64,000 nucleotides of DNA from Pyrenophora tritici-repentis (taxonomy: Eukaryota > Ascomycota > Dothideomycetes > Pleosporales > Pleosporaceae): assembly GCF_003171515.1 (NCBI RefSeq), contig NC_089393.1, positions 2,170,001 through 2,234,000 on the forward strand, written 5' to 3'. The notes below the pieces were generated by a model. It was not told where the DNA came from and did not search any database. It worked only from the letters and a program-made list of their open reading frames with translations. Each line of letters opens with the position of its first letter. Position 1 is the first letter of the stretch. Below are positions 14,525 through 24,534 of the stretch, one piece after another. The translations under genes and the position numbers were made by a program.

Positions 14525-17500
14525 ATGGGCCGGTCAACGATCCCCCCGGCGCTCAATGAGCTCTCGAATCCCAGCACACCCGAAGCACAGGTTGCCGCGC
14601 TACAGAGCCTTAAGAACGAGATAGTCGGACATGAGCAGAGGAAGGAGCTGGCAGTGACACATGGTGTTGTGAAACCGCTCGCAGGATTGCTACGAGCGGA
14701 AGCGAGGAAAGGCGGCAAGAGAAGAAGGAACAATGCCACAAACGGACACGGCTCGAGTCTCTTCAGTGAGACTAGGAGGGGCATGGAGGAATGGACCACC
14801 GAGGACGAGCTGAGGTTCCAGGCCACACTCGTCGTTGGCAGTCTTGCGAATGGTGAGCGCGCAACGTCCAAGACTTCTGCGTGGAAACGTGTTAGCTAAT
14901 GCATGAGACATATAGGCGGTCCGGCATTCGTTGCACCATTGCTGGCCGGCGACGTACTATCCCCATTACTAGAAGCGCTGCGACCGAGCGAAACGCCCTC
15001 GAAGCTCGTCACCACAGCCCTCAAGACGCTCAATCAGATTGTCGACGCCGCTGTCCAGGAGAAGCCTTGGCTCGACATGTCAGACTCCTCTTCAAGATCT
15101 TCCCTCGCCTTTGCTTTCAACGAGTCGATATACACCCGGTCGGTCATTGAGAGTCTTGCCGAAATACTAGCACAGCCGGCAGGGACGTCAAAGGCCAACC
15201 AGCAGATAGAATCAGCAGTACGTCTCATAATGAAGACTTGTCAAGAAGATAGTCATAAGAAGATGCTGGTGGACGCGGGCATACTGGATCTCTTGGCTGA
15301 AAAACTTGCTGCTGTCGCTGCAATGGACGATCGCATACCCATAACTGAGGCCAAGCAATCACATTACGAGCAGCTCCCTCGTACCTGCTTATCTGATATT
15401 ATGGAAACCATATCAGCCATCATCAGGGACTCGCATTTCTACACGGCACGCTTCCTCTATTCACAACCAATACAGCAACTCTTCGGGTGGCCGAAAGAAC
15501 GCGCAACAGCAAACTTTGACCAAAGCAGTGCGTCACAAACACCGTCATGGGAGAAGCTTATACCGCGAGTACAGACAATGGCCAGCAAATCAGATCCGTA
15601 TATCAAACAATGGCCAGCTCTTGGTGCTTACCCTTCTGCAACAGGAGACAGCTACTCCCGGCTGGAGTCGCAGCAGCCCACTTCAAGTCGGAGCGTCATC
15701 ACAGATGAATCTGAGTCTCCGCTATTCATATGGCTGATGTATGTAGCGCGTCGGGGCGAAGGTAGAGAGAGGTTGTCTGCCTGTTGGCTACTAGCGTTGC
15801 TGAAGAAATTCGGTGACCGATGGCCTCTCAACGACCCATCAAAGACAACACGAGAGCGGCACTTTTCGTATCTGATCATTCCGTTGGTCGAGAAGATGAT
15901 TGAGGATTCAAGTCCAACGTCGGATCAGGTGAAGAAGGCTCATAACCTGAGCCCAGCGGCAAGGGAGGAACTGCGTTTCGTTTTAGAGCGCTCACCTGTG
16001 GTTCTTGCAGAGCTTGTTGCAGGCAATAAGTCGCTGCAGACAGCTGCAGTTCATGCTCGAACCCTACCCACGCTCATCCAAATCCTTAAGAAGTCGTTCG
16101 ATATACCCACAACATCATCTAAACCTCTCTGGCAGCCGAAATCCGCATCTCACGAGGTAAAAGACTCCGCGATCGACCCTGCATCTTCGACCCTTGGGCG
16201 ATCAGGACTTAACCCAGATCTATTACATGCATTCAGATACCGGGAGAGCGTTCTTCTCGCACTAGCGGCGATAGCCGGTGACCAAGATTCGTTGCGGAAG
16301 ATGGTAATCGAGATGGGCGCGGCAACGCACATCATCGAAGCACTAGTTCCGTACAACGAAAACAGCGAGCAGGGTGCGTCTTCTTCAGCAAAGGATGGCA
16401 ACCCCGACCCCGTACTCATTGCTGCCTGTAAAGTCACGCGGTCACTATCAAGATCAGTCAGTGTGCTCAGGACGAGCCTCATCGATCATGGCGTTGCACA
16501 GCCCATCTTTGAGCTTTTGACACATCCCAATGTCAAAGTACAGATTGCAGCTACTGAAGTCATCACTAACCTGGTCTTGGACGTGTCACCCATGCGAACG
16601 GTAAGTACAGCAATGACAGCCTAATCTTTCGCAAGCTAATATTGTCTAGGAGATTCTCGAGTCTGGAGTGCTGGGCACGTTGTGCGAGCAATGTCGATCG
16701 GCCAACTTTGACCTCCGATTTGGCAGTCTTTGGGCTTTGAAACATCTCTGCCTCGGGCTGCCTCATGCGATGAAAATTCAATGTTTGGACGAGCTCGGCG
16801 TGGGCTGGTTGGTACAAGTGCTAAATGGGGAGCCATCCAAACCAGCCATGGGCACACCCAACGCAGCTGGGGAGCAGGTTGATATTCTAAACGCAGTTGA
16901 TGAGCCTCGTATGGATGTGGATGAAGAGGCCTCTTCTGAAGACGATGATGCAATGACTGAAAGCATACCATCCATGCGCCGGCACCCGCGTTCCGGTTCA
17001 CGCTACACAAGTGCAACAAATATCCGCGATCGTTTGCAACAGATAAAGAATGATGAGCAGGATAATCGACTGAACGGAGAGCGCGACGATATTCGCATAC
17101 AGGAACAAGCTCTAGATTTTATCCGGAACTTTGTCTCGGAAGATAAAGCTTCTGGCGAGATGATTGATCACCTCCTCAAGACTTTCGGACACAGCCGGTT
17201 CTTTGAACTTCTTGATGCTAAGATCCGACCGAAGAACTCTTCCATGTCATCACAATCACAAGCCAGTCCTGGCACACCCAGCTACTGGCTGAGCAACAGC
17301 CACCGCACAACTTTCACACAACCTTCGAATAACCTCGCGCAACCCAATTGGGCCGCCTACCCTTCCACTGAACTTATATTGGCAACTATCTACATCCTTG
17401 TGCACCTTGCCAACGGCCGCCCACAACATCGCTCGCTCCTAATCTCTCAAACTACACTGATGCAACATGTTCTCCCGCTTTTTTCACATCCACGCCGAGA

Positions 17501-17837
17501 TGTCCGCGTAGCTTGTGCATGGATGCTACACAATCTTGTGTGGATAGAAGACCACACCGATGAAGCAGCAACAAGAGAACGTGCAATGAGCCTGAGACAA
17601 CTCGGCTTCGAGGAAGGCGCAAAGCAACTAGGTCGCGATATGGACCTTGATGTCAAACAACGGGCCATTGTTAGTATCGAGCAATTCGACAAGTTGCTCA
17701 ATGGCGGCCACGGTCGGAGTGGCTTCGCTAGTCCCGGTGGTTATGGTGGTGGTGATGGTGGTGGTGTTGGCGGGTTGGGAGGAATGAGCGGTAGACTGGG
17801 TGGAATGCCTGGATGGAGGAACGACTCTCGGGGCTGA
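14525..17837 (+). CDS. Armadillo-repeat protein, Vid28/Gid5 (ARMC8) like
   Basis: This is a predicted scaffold subunit of the GID/CTLH ubiquitin ligase, which in yeast marks gluconeogenic enzymes such as fructose-1,6-bisphosphatase for degradation after glucose is restored. There are three exons: 14525-14852, 14916-16600 and 16650-17837, giving 1066 aa. The protein is built almost entirely of armadillo-type helical repeats. They start with a repeat around ALQSLKNEIVGHEQRKELAV. They continue through ALAAIAGDQDSLRKMVIEMG and ATEVITNLVLDVSPM, and end in RRDVRVACAWMLHNLVW followed by RERAMSLRQLGFEEGAKQL. That last segment is what links it to Vid28/ARMC8. An acidic Asp/Glu/Ser insert and a basic stretch lie near residues 760-800. 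The extreme C-terminus is Gly-rich. The ATG lies in a good context (GCGCCATGG). Confidence 0.85.
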
Positions 17838-18262
17838 TGGAATTTGTACTGATGCATTTTCTGGCGCGTTAATGTTTGCATCAGCGTGGGTATTTGTAAC
17901 GGTATACGGTCGAGCGATGGAAATTGCTAATATTCGGATTTGATCTGAATGAATGAGAGGGCGTGGCGGATACATCAATGAATCCTGCTTCTTCGTATGC
18001 GGTTGCTGTGTTGTCGCAGGCTGTTTACTGCGTCCTTAATGTCGTGGCAAGACTTGGGATCTTGTAGATAGATCGAAGATATGCATGGCGGCCGAGATTT
18101 TGATATAACCCACTGTATTAAAAGCATGTGGGAATGAATCGTATGTAGTTCTAGCGCCCAAAATCCTTGAGGAACAGTGTCATGAGATACACACCCTCTC
18201 TAGCAACATCTTACACTCACATAACATGGCCTCCCCGCGCTTAGAATTTTCGGGCTGCCGCA
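17838..18262. other. Downstream spacer before the repeat region
   Basis: This stretch holds the 3' region of the armadillo gene and the transition to the AT-rich repeat block. No gene or structured element is visible. Confidence 0.5.
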
Positions 18263-18790
18263 TATATAAACTGTTCTTTTCTCTCTTCTCTCCTCTTCTC
18301 CTATACTCTACACTTCTTTCTGAAAAGCCTATAGTTTCTAAAACTTGGACAACATCGGAAATGTCTTTCTTTCCACTTCTTGAAAATAAAAAATGTTTGG
18401 ATAGGAAGGAATGTTTGTTTTCATACTTTCTAAACAAAGCGTCGCAAAACGTATGTGGCTATTTGCGGTTCCTAAAAAAATGGAGTCGCTATACCTATGT
18501 ATTCCTTTGTAGTTTCTAAAACTCAAACATAAGCACAGATGTGCTTCTTCCTATTTCTAAAAATCCGCAATGGTATCACAACATGTGTTCCTTCCCGTTT
18601 CTGAAAATCCGTCCTTATATATTTAAATGTGTTTCCTTCCTGTTTTTAAAAAATGTCACTTCAATCTCAAAATGTGTTTCTTTCCGACTTTAAATTGGTA
18701 TATCCTAAAAAAGAATGGTTCTGCCTTTCTCCTCCTTTCTTGTTCCTTAAAATCCCTCGAAATTCCCTAGTTTACCGTTTGAAAAATCAA
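18263..18790. repeat. Degenerate ~44-bp tandem array with TATA/CT-tract leader
   Basis: It begins with TATATAAA (18263-18270) and a ~50-nt pyrimidine tract. A degenerate unit then recurs, of the form ATGTGTTTCCTTCC-(T/G)TTTCTAAAAATCC. Unit starts can be read near 18453, 18500, 18539, 18583, 18625, 18671 and 18715, so spacing is 39-47 bp. The short open frames here are by-products of the repeat. There is no coding evidence. Confidence 0.7.
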
Positions 18791-19587
18791 AAGTTGTGAG
18801 CCACAGATTTCATAACTGCGGCTTTCTGTGGTTTCCGAAAAAAGTGTTCTGTGGTTTCGAAACTGCTTGAAAATCAACTTAAGAAGAGACTATGGCTGTG
18901 GCTTTCTGTTTTTTTCTCTAAAAGAGCCATGTTGTACGGTATTAAAAGACGCATCCGATAGCGTTATGTGTAACTGCGGATTTCTGCGGATTTCTAGACA
19001 CGTGGTTTATATAAGACCGAGGATAAAAATCGCGCACTGAATAGCTATATGAGTGTGGCTTTCACTGGTTTTCTAGAAATTCATCTATAATGGGATCTGA
19101 ATTACTTGAAAAGACTAGTTAACACGAACTTACGGGTGCTGTTCCCTGGATTTTTCTAAACACCTGATTTCTATGAAACCGATAAATTCGCTTTCATCAC
19201 GCTAATGGGTGTGATTCTCTCTGTGTTTCTAAAAAAATTCTTTTGTACGGTATTTGAAATACTTGAAAATTCAGAGAAGTTTAGATATGGGTGTGGCTTT
19301 TCGGGAATTCCCCCGCACCTGGTTCCATGATACTGTGGATAGAAAATCATCGATAGACTCGTCACATGCTGCGGTTCTCTCTGGTTTTCTGAAAAGAAAA
19401 AAGCCACATTCATTGATGTTCAAAATATTTCAAAATGTCAAAGCATATCGAGGTATGGGTGCTGCTTCCTGGAGGTTTCTATGTATTATTATTTTTTACG
19501 AAGGAGGCTAAAATCTACATAAAGCCTCTGTATGACTGACTGCGGCTTTGCTGGGGTTCCTGAAATCATTCGGTGATATTTGAAACA

Positions 19588-19642
19588 ACGTGGTTGGCAA
19601 GCGAGTCGGTCAGACAAGCGAGTCGGTCACCCCACCAACTTT
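19588..19642 (+). repeat. Left terminal inverted repeat of the transposon
   Basis: This 55-bp sequence starts ACGTGGTTGGCAAGCGAG and matches the reverse complement of 21390-21444 at every position. It includes two direct copies of a 15-bp motif. Confidence 0.93.
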
Positions 19643-19668
19643 AATCACCTACTCTATCTCAACACATA

Positions 19669-21324
19669 ATGCCTCCACGCCGCGCTCCTCTTGTGCCTTC
19701 AAATGAAGCAGATATTCAGCTTGCTCTCTTATCTATAGATTCTGCCCAAATTCAGAGTACGCGACGCGCTGCTACAGTCTTCGATATCCCAAAATCAACC
19801 CTAATTGACCGGCGCGCTGGAAAGCGCGCGCGACGCGATTGCCAGCCTAACTCAAGGAAGCTTACCCAGAGAGAAGAGGAGGTGATTGTTAGCTATATAC
19901 TTCATCTAGATCAGCGCGGGTTTGCGCCTACCTACGCAGCTGCACGCGATATGGCTGATAAGCTGCTGGCTGCGCGCGGCGCTGGCCAGGTTGGGCAGAA
20001 GTGGCCAGCCAACTTTGTCAAGCGGACAGATAGTCTTCGGACGTGTTTCAACCGAGCGTACGATAGGCAGAGAGCTCTCTGTGAGAATCCAGCCCTTATT
20101 AGAAGCTGGTTTGAGCTTATAGAGAAGACAAAGGCTGAGCTTGGTATCTGCGATGAGGATATATACAACTTTGATGAAGCTGGCTTTATGATGGGCAAGA
20201 TTACAACGCAGCTAGTTATAACAGGAGCAGAGAGGAGAGGCAGGCCGAAGACTCTTCAGCCAGGCAATCGCGAGTGGGTAACGCTGATCGCTGCTATCAG
20301 CGCTGCTGGCTGGTCAGTCCCACCGTTCCTCATCTTCGCTGGCCAGTACCACCTATTAGCCTGGTACGAGGAAGCTGAGATCCCACGCGACTGGGCAATC
20401 GCAGTCAGCGACAATGGCTGGACAAATAATGAGCTTGGAGTTGAGTGGCTAAAGCACTTCAACGCTCACACGCAGGCTCGTACTATAGGCGCGCGTCGCC
20501 TGCTTATTATTGATGGCCATAAGAGCCACCAATCTCTAGCGTTCTAGGAGCTCTGCAAGGAGAACAATATCTATACGCTCTGTATGCCTCCTCACTCATC
20601 TCACCTACTCCAGCCACTTGATGTTGGCTGCTTCTCGCCATTGAAGCGCGCGTACAGCCGTGAGGTGGAGAGCCTCATGCGCAACCACATCAACCACATC
20701 ACCAAGCTAGAGTTTCTGCCAGCATTCAAGATAGCATTTGATCAAGCGTTCACGCCAGCCAACATCTGCTCAGCCTTCCGCGGCGCAGGCCTTGTTCCTC
20801 TACAACCAGAGGCTGTTCTATCAAAGCTAGATGTACAGCTGCGTACACCTACTCCTCCAGCAGCAGCTCTGCCAGAGGCTCCCTGGGTAGCTCAAACGCC
20901 GAGCAACGCGCGTGAGCTTGAAGCTCAGTCAAGCCTAATACGTGAGCGCGTGCGCCAGCACAAGAGCTCATCACCAGCATCAATTATTGAGGCAATTGAC
21001 CAGCTGAAGAAGGGCGCTGAGGTGATAATGCTCTCTGCTGAGCTAATGCGCGATCGGATCTCCAGTCTTGAGAAGGCTAACAGCGCAGCCTCAGCGCGTA
21101 GGCGGCGCTCTAAAAGGCGTATACAGAAGCACGGAGTACTTATAAAAGGAACTGGAGAGGATATACTAGCTCAAAATGAGGCTGACCAGCAGATTGCTCA
21201 TGAAGAGCGTCGAGGAGGAGCGCGATCAGGCCTCAGCCAGCGCGCTCAAAGGCGCTGCACTAGATGCAAAGAGACCGGGCACAACTCGCGCACATGCAAC
21301 ACTAATACTATTAATATAGAGTAG
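19669..21324 (+). pseudogene. Pogo/Fot1 transposase with one in-frame stop
   Basis: This is a DDE-type transposase gene of 552 codons, open except for a TAG at 20545-20547 (codon 293). The N-terminal ~120 residues carry helix-turn-helix DNA-binding segments (RRAATVFDIPKSTLIDRRAG and a CENP-B-like second part ending WPANFVKR). The catalytic domain shows Asp169 (NFDEAGF), Asp282 (IIDGHKSH) and Asp318 (QPLDVGCFSPLK), a DD35D spacing. The C-terminus is basic and ends in a zinc knuckle, CTRCKETGHNSRTC (C-x2-C-x4-H-x4-C). The stop lies just after the second Asp, where CAG to TAG is the simplest change. Both halves are otherwise free of stops and frameshifts. The product as written would lack the third catalytic Asp, so this copy is probably inactive unless read through. 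Confidence 0.9.
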
Positions 21325-21389
21325 TCTACTATATCAATATCTAGCAATAATATTATCGTGTTGTTGAGATATATCGCTTTAAAGTTGCA

Positions 21390-21444
21390 AAAGTTGGTGG
21401 GGTGACCGACTCGCTTGTCTGACCGACTCGCTTGCCAACCACGT
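21390..21444 (-). repeat. Right terminal inverted repeat of the transposon
   Basis: This is the exact reverse complement of 19588-19642, followed by TA. Confidence 0.93.
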
Positions 21445-22006
21445 TACTTGAAATATGGAAAAGACTTTGGAATGAGGGTTGTTTCCTATAGTTTTCCAAG
21501 TCTCTGGTTCCGTTAAAAAACACTTGCTATCCAAGGGTGACTATGGCTCTTCCTAGTTTCCCGAAATCTTACATTCTGTGCTATTTGAGAAACTTGAAAC
21601 GACAGTTGGACAGCTGCATGACGCGGCTTTTTGTGGTTTTTCCAACACCTATTTTCTATAAGACCGGGGATAAAATCTTGTACACATCAGAGCCATGGCT
21701 GCGGTTTCTGGTTTCCCAAACATTCCATCTTCTATACTACTGAAAATACTTAAAAAAGCTACAACCGACGTGTTTTATGACTGTGGTGCTCTGGTGGTGT
21801 GCGCCTACTAAAAAAATCACCGACGTGTACTATATGACTTTTCCCGCTTCTGCTCGGGGGAGTATAGAATATACATACGCGGTTCTGATGGCGTTGAGTC
21901 CTCTCTTCTGGACACATTGGAGCTCATCTAATCATCAAAATGTTTTGGAACGTTTTAAAAAGGTTATCTTCCTTGAGTATGTTGGAAGTACTGAGTCAGT
22001 GTGGTG

Positions 22007-22840
22007 TATATAAAGCTTCTTCTGCTATTCTTCCTCCCTTCCTTCTTTCCTCACACACACAAAGTTCTACTTTCTTACTTTCTCAAAAAGCTGCCGAAAA
22101 ACTATGGATGTAGCTGCCTTCCTTAAAATTACTCATAGACATCCTGATGTTCCTGCCCTTTCCTAAAAGCTTATGGAAAAGATGCAGAAGTGTCTGCCTT
22201 TCTCGGAATTATCATCGACTTCCTGGATGTTCCTACCTTTCTCCAAAGTACCTTTCCAAGTCTATATATCCTAGTCTTCCTTAAACGCTTTGTGGAGATA
22301 TTAATGTCCCTGTCTTCTTCTAAAAAACTATACGCAAAATCTCCTTAATACCCCTGACTTTCTCATAGTCTACCTATACCTTTACATGTCTCTATCTTTC
22401 GAAAAGCCCTCTACAACCCTCATCTCTCTCCCTCTCCCTCTCTCTCCTTCTTAAAATCCTGACATATCTGTCTATGTCTGCGTCCTCTCCCTCCCTCTAA
22501 AAAACGGCTTGCTCCTCCTTCATGTTCTGGGCCTTTCCCCCTCTCCCCTCTATATCTTCAAACTTCTAAAAATTCAACGTGCGTTCCCCGACTAAAAAAC
22601 TATGGACGTTCTCTGAACATATAAAATTCTTAAAATCACTGCCGTTCCCTCTCTATCTCTATGGGTTCAAATGGCCCTTATTCTGCCGGATGAGACTTTG
22701 TGGGGGTAAAATAGTCACAAACAATGCTCATGTTGTGTGCAAAGCAGCAGAATTATTTGAAAAAAAAGGTTACCAGAAGCTATGATGGAGAGTGGTCGAG
22801 CCTGTACAAAACATACACGTGATGATTGAAACGAGGTCCT
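22007..22840. repeat. Second TATA/CT-tract module with ~40-bp tandem units
   Basis: TATATAAA at 22007-22014 is followed by a long pyrimidine tract. Degenerate units of the form (A/G)ATGT-CCTGCCTTTCC-TAAAA then start near 22107, 22146, 22187, 22225, 22266, 22303, 22347 and 22384. Spacing is 37-44 bp. From 22430 it grades into CT-rich sequence with CTCTCCCTC runs. No coding evidence is seen. Confidence 0.65.
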
Positions 22841-22848
22841 ACCGGGGG

Positions 22849-23030
22849 TATATAAAGTCTGTCTGCTCTTTCTACTTTTCTTCTTTCTCTGTATATAAAA
22901 AGTGTGGTTTCTCTAAAATCTCGCTGAAAGTAGCGTGTCTGTGACCTACTCAAAAGAACGGCAGCCAAGTTCGATGTTTGCGGTGTGGAGTCCCTGCACA
23001 TATTTTTTGAAAATCATTGCTGTGTCCACA
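22849..23030. repeat. Third TATA/CT-tract module
   Basis: TATATAAA (22849-22856) is followed by a ~45-nt CT tract, a second TATATAAAA and then GTGTGGTTTCTCTAAAATC. This resembles the starts of the blocks at 18263 and 22007. It is short and ends before the 3' region of the coproporphyrinogen oxidase gene. Confidence 0.55.
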
Positions 23031-23202
23031 GAGTGAGATGTGGAGCATACATACAATAAGTTTTGAGGAGTATACCAAAAGATAGGCCCATGCATCCATC
23101 AAAAACAGTTAGCATGATCACAGCACAGCAGCAGTAGATGGATGATTCAAGAACATTCAAACAAGCATCATAGTCTTCATTCGTATATACATAAATCCTA
23201 AC

Positions 23203-24534
23203 CTATACCCACTCCTTTGGCTTCTTCAAGACTTCCAATAACCGCTCTTCTCTGCTGCCCTTTTCCGGTGCGTGCATGTATTGCCACCTCGCGGTAAGGG
23301 GCAAGCTCATCAAAATACTCTCCACACGAGCACCTGGCGTGTTCAAACCAAACGCCGTTCCGCGGTCGTGCACGAGATTGAATTCGACGTAGCGTCCTCG
23401 TCGGATCTGCTGCCACTGCTTCATCTCATCCGTGTATGGCATATCCTTGCGCCTGTTGATGATAGGTAGGTATGAAGGGAGGAAGGCGGATAGGCAGTCT
23501 TGTACGAAAGAGAAGAGCTGTTCCTGGTCCTTCTCCGTTTCGTCCAAGTCGTCGAAGAAGATGCCGCCTACACCTCGTGTCTCGCCTCGGTGCTTGTTGC
23601 TGAAATATTCGTCGCACCACTTCTTGAAGCGTGGGTAGTATGCCTTGTCATGCTTGTCGCAAGCCTGCTTTATGGCGCCGTGGAAGAGTATCGCATCCTC
23701 GTCGTAGAGGTAGGAGGGTGTGAGATCGCAACCGCCGCCAAACCACCACGCATTTGTGTTTCCAAACTCGTCGGCTGTCTCGAAGTAGCGATAGTTTAGA
23801 TGTACAGTCGGGGCGTTGGGGTTGTGAGGGTGGAGGACCATGGACAGGCCTGCGGCGAAGAACTCGAGGGAATCGACGTCTAGGTCTAGGGCTTTGTGAT
23901 TCACACGCATCTTTTGTATAGCAGCGCGAGGCAGGCGACCGTATACGACTGAGGTGTTGACGCCGGCCTTTTCGAATACCTTGCCATCCTGTAGAATACA
24001 AGTGATGCCGCCCCCACCCTGTGGCCGTTGCCATGTGTCGATCTTGAATTTTGTGCCGTCCACCTTTTCTAGCTCGGCCACAATCTCCTTTTGATTCTGC
24101 TTTATGAACTGTTCCATGCGTAGTCGCATTGGCGATTGCTCAGACACACCATTCTCCCGCTTGAGCAGCGCATCTTTCTCGGCGATTGAGGGTCCTTCGG
24201 TCTTGATAGAGTCATCCGTCCACTGTAGGAGAATTAGAGTAATCTCTTAGAGGCATCTGGATGCGCCTACCATGGAGTATATCAGGGCACCGATAAAAGG
24301 CAGAAACATCAGCCGTATCCGGTTCGGCCATTTGCTCGGCGGGGGATTGCGCCATTCCTCCAGAGGATCTGGCGTTTCCTGCTTCTTAGCTGTAGGCAAT
24401 TCTAACCTGCGGCTTTGTGAAGAGTGTAATTGCCGGCTGCGGATGTGACTTGGGCGCAAGGTCCGTTGCGGCGCATAGCTGTGGGGAAGCTCGAGAGCTC
24501 TGGAGATGCGGGAAGTTGGGCGAAAAGGACGCAT
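23203..24534 (-). CDS. HEM13: Coproporphyrinogen III oxidase, with mitochondrial presequence
   Basis: This enzyme carries out the oxygen-dependent oxidative decarboxylation of coproporphyrinogen III to protoporphyrinogen IX in haem synthesis. There are two exons on the minus strand, 24534-24271 and 24222-23203, with an intron at 24223-24270, giving 427 aa. The catalytic domain (about 105-427) carries the family signature HLNYRYFE followed by [13 protein letters not shown], then [13 protein letters not shown] and [16 protein letters not shown]. The first exon encodes an Arg/Ser-rich, acid-poor leader ([20 protein letters not shown]...) followed by a hydrophobic stretch, [14 protein letters not shown]. 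This suggests mitochondrial targeting and possibly membrane anchoring, unlike the cytosolic enzyme of baker's yeast. I chose the first ATG at 24534; the frame is open further upstream but without an ATG. Confidence 0.94.

What the first reader, a model, noticed from the sequence alone, without database searches (positions are those of the whole stretch)
18263..22849. Gene-free satellite with nested 40/80/160-bp periodicity
Removing the transposon leaves a region in which one core motif (GYGGCTTTCTCTGG-TTTTCTRAAA) recurs every ~80 bp. From 18966 the linkers alternate between two types, giving a dimeric unit of 147-166 bp, close to nucleosome repeat length. The flanking blocks use a related core at 39-47 bp (left) and 37-44 bp (right). 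A 40-80-160 series suggests successive doubling of one ancestral unit, like higher-order satellites in other eukaryotes. I know of no named fungal family with this layout. Positions were read by eye; units are very degenerate.
Basis: seen in the sequence. Interest (0 to 1): 0.75.

Follow-up and report, generated by a model that had tools for sequence, protein, structure and literature searches.

The report
Fungal noncoding arrays with fixed-length spacers
A gene-free repeat in a fungal genome turns out to be one of a family of one-directional repeat arrays whose units share two short signals held about 18 letters apart, with nearly free letters between them, which suggests an undescribed kind of noncoding element.

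Summary
The periodicity is real: 44/88/133 bp left, 79 and 159 bp middle, about 40 bp (weaker) right. It is not a one-locus satellite. A motif-pair pattern found similar blocks elsewhere in this Pleosporales-like genome, 28 clusters against 1.6 expected. The AAAA-to-ATG spacing is sharply fixed (17/18/19 = 123/261/143 against about 40 per bin), without a comparable peak on the other strand or in the rest of the window. It recurs in six further loci pooled (16/32/23 against about 5). The bases between are near background even where both sides are homologous. Frame, start-codon context, fold, Rfam and Pfam tests give no support for a peptide or known RNA. Best reading: transcribed, multi-copy, two-part recognition elements working as nucleic acid; function is inferred, not shown. 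Bolder reading: small-RNA cassettes with hypervariable bodies.

The parts
18263..18324 (+). TATATAAA box (18263-18270) and CT-rich leader of module 1
   Evidence: TATATAAA occurs 4 times on the + strand in 64 kb, all in this locus (18263, 22007, 22849, 22892; once on the - strand, 19006); the only 50-mer stretch with >=86% Y on either strand is 18269-18324
18335..18808 (+). left block, units of about 40-50 bp; cassettes AAAA-N17-19-ATG at 18340, 18388, 18432, 18518, 18559, 18604, 18648
   Evidence: autocorrelation; core positions; cassette list
18809..19587 (+). middle block, alternating A/B 80-bp monomers up to the transposon; cassettes at 18870, 18944, 19025, 19184, 19266, 19343, 19432, 19510
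   Evidence: alignments; autocorrelation 159/79; cassettes
19588..21444 (+). pogo/Fot1-like DNA transposon inserted in a B linker; interrupted transposase; not part of the array
   Evidence: Pfam DDE_1, HTH_psq, HTH_Tnp_Tc5 in two separate ORFs; family of many copies; flanks; linker assignment by eye
21445..21836 (+). rest of the middle block; cassettes at 21451, 21597, 21672, 21752, 21810
21957..21981 (+). single cassette between the middle block and module 2
22007..22084 (+). TATATAAA box and CT-rich leader of module 2
   Evidence: three leaders aligned
22085..22660 (+). right block, units of about 40 bp; cassettes at 22085, 22125, 22283, 22453, 22499
22669..22787 (+). cassettes at 22669, 22708, 22760 between the right block and module 3
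22849..22976 (+). TATATAAA box, CT-rich leader and short array of module 3 (second TATATAAA at 22892; cassette 22952-22976)

Best explanation
The locus is one member of a genome-wide family of noncoding tandem arrays. Each array is a strand-oriented transcription unit, often TATA-led (transcription inferred), made of cassettes. Each cassette is a Y-rich stretch ending TTTYT-AAAA, a spacer of 17-19 bases of nearly free sequence, then ATG followed by a G/T-rich, A-poor stretch. The cassette is read as nucleic acid, not translated: one factor or complex touches the AAAA side and the ATG side at a fixed distance of about 22 bases, two turns of B-DNA or the reach of an RNA-measuring protein. The array gives that factor tens of sites in one DNA/RNA segment, as a multivalent platform or sponge. 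Local tandem duplication of one, two or more cassettes gives the 40/80/160 series and other higher-order periods. Shown: the family, the orientation, the fixed spacing, the nearly free spacer, the lack of a pooled frame. Inferred: transcription, the existence of a binder, the platform role.
For: Spacing: A-run end to ATG = 17/18/19 in 123/261/143 cases against about 40 per bin; by A-run start, 146/249/132 at 21/22/23 forward against 28/40/32 on the reverse strand (neighbouring bins 18-36) and 24/23/27 in the rest of the window. Of 64 trinucleotides tested after exact A4 runs, ATG at 22 is by far the strongest (154 against 12.9 per bin). Window alone: 30 cassettes against a circular-shift mean of 5.6, maximum 16 in 1320 shifts. 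Six further loci, with the hits that chose them left out: 16/32/23 against about 5, reverse 1/1/5. Spacer length is kept, although 1-base gaps are frequent in loosely gapped within-locus alignments (807 of 1419 gaps, spacers included) and ATG-to-next-AAAA is broad. Direction: 569 forward against 96 reverse cassettes in 26 loci. TATA: same-strand TATAWAW near the first cassette in 9 of 20 loci with at least 300 bp upstream, against 3 of 20 on the other strand; in 8 of 26 loci it lies 65-85 bp before the first cassette, and 77-78 bp in two of three window modules. TATAAA: 85 on the array strand, 25 on the other, in 22 sequences. Not coding: ATG-to-AAA distance mod 3 (0/1/2) = 34/46/31; codons to stop 25.6/25.0/25.6 in three frames and no ATG avoidance in the spacer; flat -3 position; ATG-ATG distance mod 3 = 116/122/125 and 175 of 1419 gaps multiples of 3.
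Against: No RNA-seq, chromatin or binding data were available, so transcription and binding are unproven. Eleven of 20 loci with room upstream lack a strict TATAWAW near the first cassette. The TATA plus CT-rich leader is not specific to arrays: of four genome matches to a leader pattern two are here and the other two have no core motif within 1.5 kb. Successive cassettes are not helically phased (period 10.5: p 0.18). Motif parts are short. Only 18 of 26 other loci have a forward cassette-density score above the highest reverse-strand score (3.0); the other eight score 1.8-2.9, and in C9_1448 the reverse strand scores higher (2.6 against 1.8). Among the six replication loci C8_1091m (2/3/2) and C7_672m (1/1/1) show little or no peak alone.
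Confidence: 0.42

Rival explanations
1. Small-RNA cassette arrays. Each AAAA+N18 (about 22 nt, or its antisense, which would begin with U and end in UUUU) is the body of a small RNA; the flanks are constant processing or promoter signals, so the variable bodies form a repertoire, as in nematode piRNA gene clusters.
For: 511 spacers, none alike beyond 14 of 17 bases. Where flanks of two units are homologous the spacer is close to background, with edges at AAAA and ATG. Spacer columns less conserved than flank columns in 10 of 10 loci where at least 4 higher-order copies could be aligned (12 loci tried). 22-nt size. The genome has 10 Piwi-domain matches at 8 places and 2 Dicer-domain matches. 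Works like the C. elegans cassette, where motif-to-product distance goes with expression (PMC3597512, abstract and one results section).
Against: No small-RNA data. Spacers are A-rich and T-poor rather than random genome sequence. Spacers show a mild excess of weak likeness among themselves (11-12 matches: 245 and 40 pairs against 148 and 27 in one shuffle). No match above shuffles in 115 kb of other sequence; the genome-wide spacer search failed its own self-match control and says nothing. Nearly all copies are old (110 of 114 within-locus alignments under 75% identity), so the spacer may simply be saturated.
Confidence: 0.23
2. Arrays of tiny promoters: TYTAAAA is a TATA-like box, N18 the usual unconstrained gap, and transcription starts at or just after ATG, giving many staggered short RNAs from the Y-rich part.
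For: Fixed box-to-start distance with free interior is normal for TATA promoters (recalled); T-rich stretch before AAAA; TATAAA words favour the array strand, 85 against 25.
Against: No pyrimidine preference at -1 of ATG (A20 C32 G24 T22); the three proper TATA boxes in the window are not followed by ATG at this distance.
Confidence: 0.13
3. Ordinary decaying minisatellites without function.
For: Degenerate tandem copies, higher-order periods, locus-specific sequence, almost no close copies.
Against: Loci whose flanks are no more alike than about 0.28-0.29 share one fixed spacing and orientation, and spacer length is kept while spacer sequence is lost. Passive decay predicts equal loss across the unit.
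Confidence: 0.1
4. Polycistronic micropeptides or upstream-ORF arrays starting at the cassette ATGs.
For: ATG is the strongest fixed word; one locus (C1:5.187 Mb) does lean to one frame class (11 of 17 distances); A-rich leader before ATG.
Against: No frame in the pooled data, no start-codon context, no Pfam match in six window ORFs.
Confidence: 0.04

Closest known systems
C. elegans type-I piRNA (21U-RNA) gene clusters
   Same: Many tiny units in clusters, a short motif, and position set by distance from it; many unique bodies (PMC3597512, abstract and section 13; other papers seen only as listings).
   Different: There the spacer between core motif and product peaks at 39 nt and the product starts at a thymidine; here 17-19 bases lie between AAAA and ATG, units are tandem and homologous within a locus, and no small RNA is known.
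CRISPR arrays (recalled)
   Same: Repeat-like constant parts alternate with unique segments of one length.
   Different: Repeats here are degenerate and locus-specific; acquisition genes were not looked for; no spacer match in the limited sequence tested.
Higher-order satellite DNA (recalled)
   Same: Nested multiples of one ancestral unit.
   Different: Densest segments of only about 0.02-3.4 kb as scored (some cut by fetch limits), mostly under 70% alike, one direction, with a kept internal spacing.
meiRNA and other DSR-bearing noncoding RNAs of fission yeast (recalled)
   Same: Noncoding transcripts with many copies of a short element that act as a sponge.
   Different: One-part UNAAAC element there; two-part element with fixed spacing here; binder and transcription unknown.
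Two-part DNA signals with fixed spacers such as bacterial -35/-10 promoters or recombination signal sequences (recalled)
   Same: Two short words, free spacer, tolerance of about one base.
   Different: Other words, other spacer length, and here in directional tandem arrays of a fungal genome.

Membership tests
Higher-order satellite | Tandem repeat with nested multiples of a base unit | tested here: met
   44/88/133 and 79/159 bp; about 40/80/119 bp weaker
Higher-order satellite | Long homogenised arrays of near-identical units | tested here: not met
   110 of 114 within-locus alignments under 75% identity, none at 90% or more; TRF finds no array
Higher-order satellite | Heterochromatic or centromeric chromatin | not testable with these tools
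   No chromatin data; other genes and large ORFs in the window
Nematode-type piRNA gene cluster | Short motif at fixed distance from a variable body | tested here: met
   AAAA-N17-19-ATG, variable interior
Nematode-type piRNA gene cluster | Ruby-type GTTTC-containing core motif | not tested
   No call looked for it; the shared words here are TTTYT-AAAA and ATG[T/G]
Nematode-type piRNA gene cluster | Piwi-bound 21-nt products | not testable with these tools
   No small-RNA data; Piwi-domain matches exist
CRISPR array | Near-identical repeats | tested here: not met
   Flank identity about 0.63 within loci, about 0.28-0.29 between loci
CRISPR array | Spacers matching invaders | tested here: inconclusive
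   No excess in 115 kb; genome-wide search lacked a working control
Protein- or peptide-coding repeats | Open, conserved reading frame | tested here: not met
   (one locus leans to one class, 11 of 17)
Known structured RNA (snoRNA, snRNA, ribozyme, tRNA) | Rfam covariance or ARAGORN match | tested here: not met
   0 gathering-level matches in 20 sources, 126,208 bases; 0 at E<=5 in 17500-23800; no tRNA in the window or in 7 loci
DSR/meiRNA-type sponge RNA | Clustered UNAAAC motifs bound by a YTH protein | not tested
   Motif and binder recalled, not searched

The most novel reading that the evidence does not exclude
A fungal genome carries some 28 arrays with many hundreds of cassettes whose 18-base bodies change far faster than their flanks while keeping their length: a fungal small-RNA or guide repertoire, built like a cross between nematode piRNA genes and a CRISPR array and served by a large Argonaute set.
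Probability: 0.17. Interest if true: 0.97.

Novelty: categorically new. Interest (0 to 1): 0.8.

Why it matters
A tight shared rule (two short words 17-19 bases apart, nearly free sequence between, one direction, no pooled frame) in some twenty or more blocks with dissimilar flanks means that something in the cell probably measures that distance. Finding the measurer would define a new class of fungal noncoding element and show whether some 'degenerate satellites' of fungal genomes are functional arrays. It is testable with ordinary kinds of data: small-RNA reads, 5'-end maps, and related genomes.

Tried and rejected
Coding: by eye the ATG-to-AAA distances in C1:5.187 Mb looked like multiples of three. 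That locus does lean to one class (11 of 17), but pooled counts showed no frame, nor did codons-to-stop or gap lengths; rejected for the family.

Exons with tiny introns, spliced-leader acceptors, heat-shock elements and branch points were considered from the sequence only and dropped because the needed signals are not in every unit; no call tested them.

Single-locus satellite: whole-block and core-pattern searches found only the locus itself, which at first suggested a private array; motif-pair patterns overturned that.

RNA structure: mean fold z about 0 on both strands in 40 array windows, like 25 control windows. Known RNA families: none.

Spacer targets: 511 spacers against 115 kb of other sequence gave no excess over shuffles. 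A genome search with 51 joined cassettes returned nothing, not even their own places, so it is uninformative.

Hypermutation versus saturation of the spacer could not be separated: only 4 of 114 within-locus alignments reach 75% identity, and those hold few positions; flank columns vary widely in conservation. Gapped alignments shrink the contrast (spacer 0.52-0.63, flank 0.70-0.77 in the three bands that hold 110 alignments); one locus (C9:1893k) has spacers at 0.51.

Transposon preference for arrays: of 10 copies at 97-100% identity with flanks fetched, 1 (this one) lies in an array; not supported.

Rows dropped: C7:2173144 (GC 0.53, two isolated hits); the reverse copy of C1:4949k (kept in 49); the hits that selected the six replication loci. 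An earlier cluster count of 31 counted some overlapping hits twice; the stricter recount is 28. Both used only the 100 listed of 133 hits and assumed lengths for contigs C5 and C41 in the null.

Papers: no description found. Searches; open-licence PMC only, so absence from print is not shown.
Full report
WHERE IT IS. The window is C4:2170001-2234000 of an unnamed 40.9-Mb genome. HEM13 at 23203-24147 (-) is a coproporphyrinogen oxidase (Pfam) whose best named relatives, at 90-93% identity, include Decorospora and Ascochyta; that these are Pleosporales is recalled. The left neighbour is an ARM-repeat protein ending at 17837 (+), whose close relatives are mostly unnamed. The two genes converge, so neither needs a promoter in the 5.4 kb between them.

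After removing the transposon, autocorrelation at 159 and 79 bp (middle) and 87 and 133 bp (left) beats all 500 dinucleotide shuffles; 44 bp on the left reaches the 99th percentile; the right block (39-40, 80, 119 bp) is weaker. One of two control stretches also beat its shuffles, but at 12-15 bp. Seven A+B dimers align; their consensus breaks down into 'n' mainly between TAAAA and ATGG, the first hint of what follows.

NOT A PRIVATE SATELLITE. Whole-block searches returned only the locus itself, and the 25-base core with up to 3 mismatches hit only here (3 matches). The pair pattern TTYCTRAAA-N25-55-TTYCTRAAA, chosen before any other array was seen, hit 29 times in the genome against 1 for the reversed control; a looser one hit 52 against 4. 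Pooled listed hits form 28 same-strand clusters with at least two non-overlapping places, against 1.6 expected (maximum 6 in 1000 placements). In 64 kb, TTYCTRAAA occurs 10 times on the + strand, each in this locus, and never on the - strand.

THE RULE. In the window and 20 other loci, oriented by the pattern, ATG lies at a sharply fixed distance after A-runs. From the run's end the spacer is 17, 18 or 19 bases in 123, 261 and 143 cases against about 40 per bin. The reverse strand and the rest of the window show no comparable peak. Six further loci repeat it when pooled, after removal of the hits that selected them; two of the six show little or nothing alone. The window by itself shows 30 cassettes against 5.6 expected. 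The profile of 504 cassettes reads T-rich, TTTYT, AAAA, an A-rich/T-poor spacer, ATG, T or G, G/T-rich, then A-poor to about +19. By contrast ATG-to-next-AAAA is loose, and distances between cassettes are neither helically nor codon phased.

NEARLY SEQUENCE-FREE SPACER. Of 511 cassettes, pairs within a locus are often alike after ATG (1.56% of 7331 pairs at 0.67 identity or more, against 0.045% between loci), but their spacers hardly are (0.055% against 0.007%). In 57 pairs chosen only by the sequence before AAAA, identity is about 0.65 just after ATG yet about 0.33 across the spacer (background about 0.26); 114 pairs chosen only by the sequence after ATG also show the drop, with edges at AAAA and ATG. 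In 10 of 10 loci with at least four alignable higher-order copies the spacer columns are less conserved (pooled 0.39, flank 0.63, AAAA/ATG 0.84, the last partly by definition; two more loci gave only 3 copies). Nearly all copies are old (110 of 114 alignments under 75% identity), so I cannot tell fast turnover from neutral saturation between constrained flanks.

NOT TRANSLATED, NOT A KNOWN RNA. No pooled frame, though C1:5.187 Mb leans to one class (11 of 17); flat -3 position, no ATG avoidance in the spacer, no Pfam match in six ORFs, no Rfam match in 126 kb, no fold bias.

PERHAPS TRANSCRIBED. TATATAAA occurs four times on the + strand of 64 kb, all here, at three module starts plus one inside module 3; the three leaders align. 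Elsewhere 9 of 20 testable loci have a same-strand TATAWAW near the first cassette against 3 of 20 on the other strand, in 8 of 26 loci 65-85 bp before it. But two of the four genome matches to a TATA-plus-CT leader lie where no core motif was found. Cassettes run one way: 569 against 96. In 18 of 26 other loci the cassette density exceeds the highest reverse-strand score; eight do not, and in one of these (C9:1448k) the reverse strand scores higher.

HOW IT MAY WORK. Something seems to measure 17-19 bases between AAAA and ATG. The economical reading is a two-part nucleic-acid signal in many copies on one transcript or DNA segment. The bolder reading is that the spacer itself is the product, a set of roughly 22-nt RNAs; RNAi genes are present (10 Piwi-domain and 2 Dicer-domain matches), and nematode piRNA genes work by distance from a motif (PMC3597512, abstract and section 13). 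Small-RNA sequencing would decide.

VERDICT. Periodicity confirmed; satellite reading only partly right; a family-wide rule found that I could not match to any described element in the searches made.

Noticed in passing
window 19588-21444: pogo/Fot1-like transposon, transposase split by an in-frame stop near 20547; 10 copies at 97-100% and 30 more at about 91% among the 40 of 206 candidates scored. In most of the other flanks shown the element sits between TA and TA; here the left dinucleotide reads CA.
   Followed up: partly
L025 (C1:5.682 Mb): A second member of the same transposon family (about 92-93% identical over 1.4 kb) lies within or at the end of another array; it runs off the fetched piece.
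   Followed up: partly
C1:5191k region (L050), C1:5682k (L025), C9:412k (L051), C7:672k (L059): A repeat of about 208 bp, mostly 99-100% identical, shared by four fetched array loci; by eye it resembles a tRNA-derived SINE in reverse orientation, but ARAGORN calls no tRNA there.
   Followed up: partly
C1:9692k (L056), C8:1091k (L058), C3:3299k (L031): A second shared repeat (207-408 bp, 96-99.8% identical) in three fetched array loci.
   Followed up: no
C1, C2, C3, C8, C9, C10: Ten Piwi-domain matches at 8 places, three of them with a stop inside (introns not excluded): Argonautes look numerous.
   Followed up: no
L021 (C1:4948-4950k): Two weak arrays (scores 2.9 and 2.6) point away from each other within about 1 kb, as from a shared promoter region.
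   Followed up: no
whole genome: The 28 clusters are unevenly spread: 11 on C1, 5 on C8, 5 on C9, 3 on C3, one each on C2, C4, C6 and C7, none on C5 or C10 among the listed hits (the list stops within C8, so later contigs are under-counted).
   Followed up: no
L044 3040-3180: Runs of a short ACTTGCTTG-like repeat just beyond the C9:488k array.
   Followed up: no
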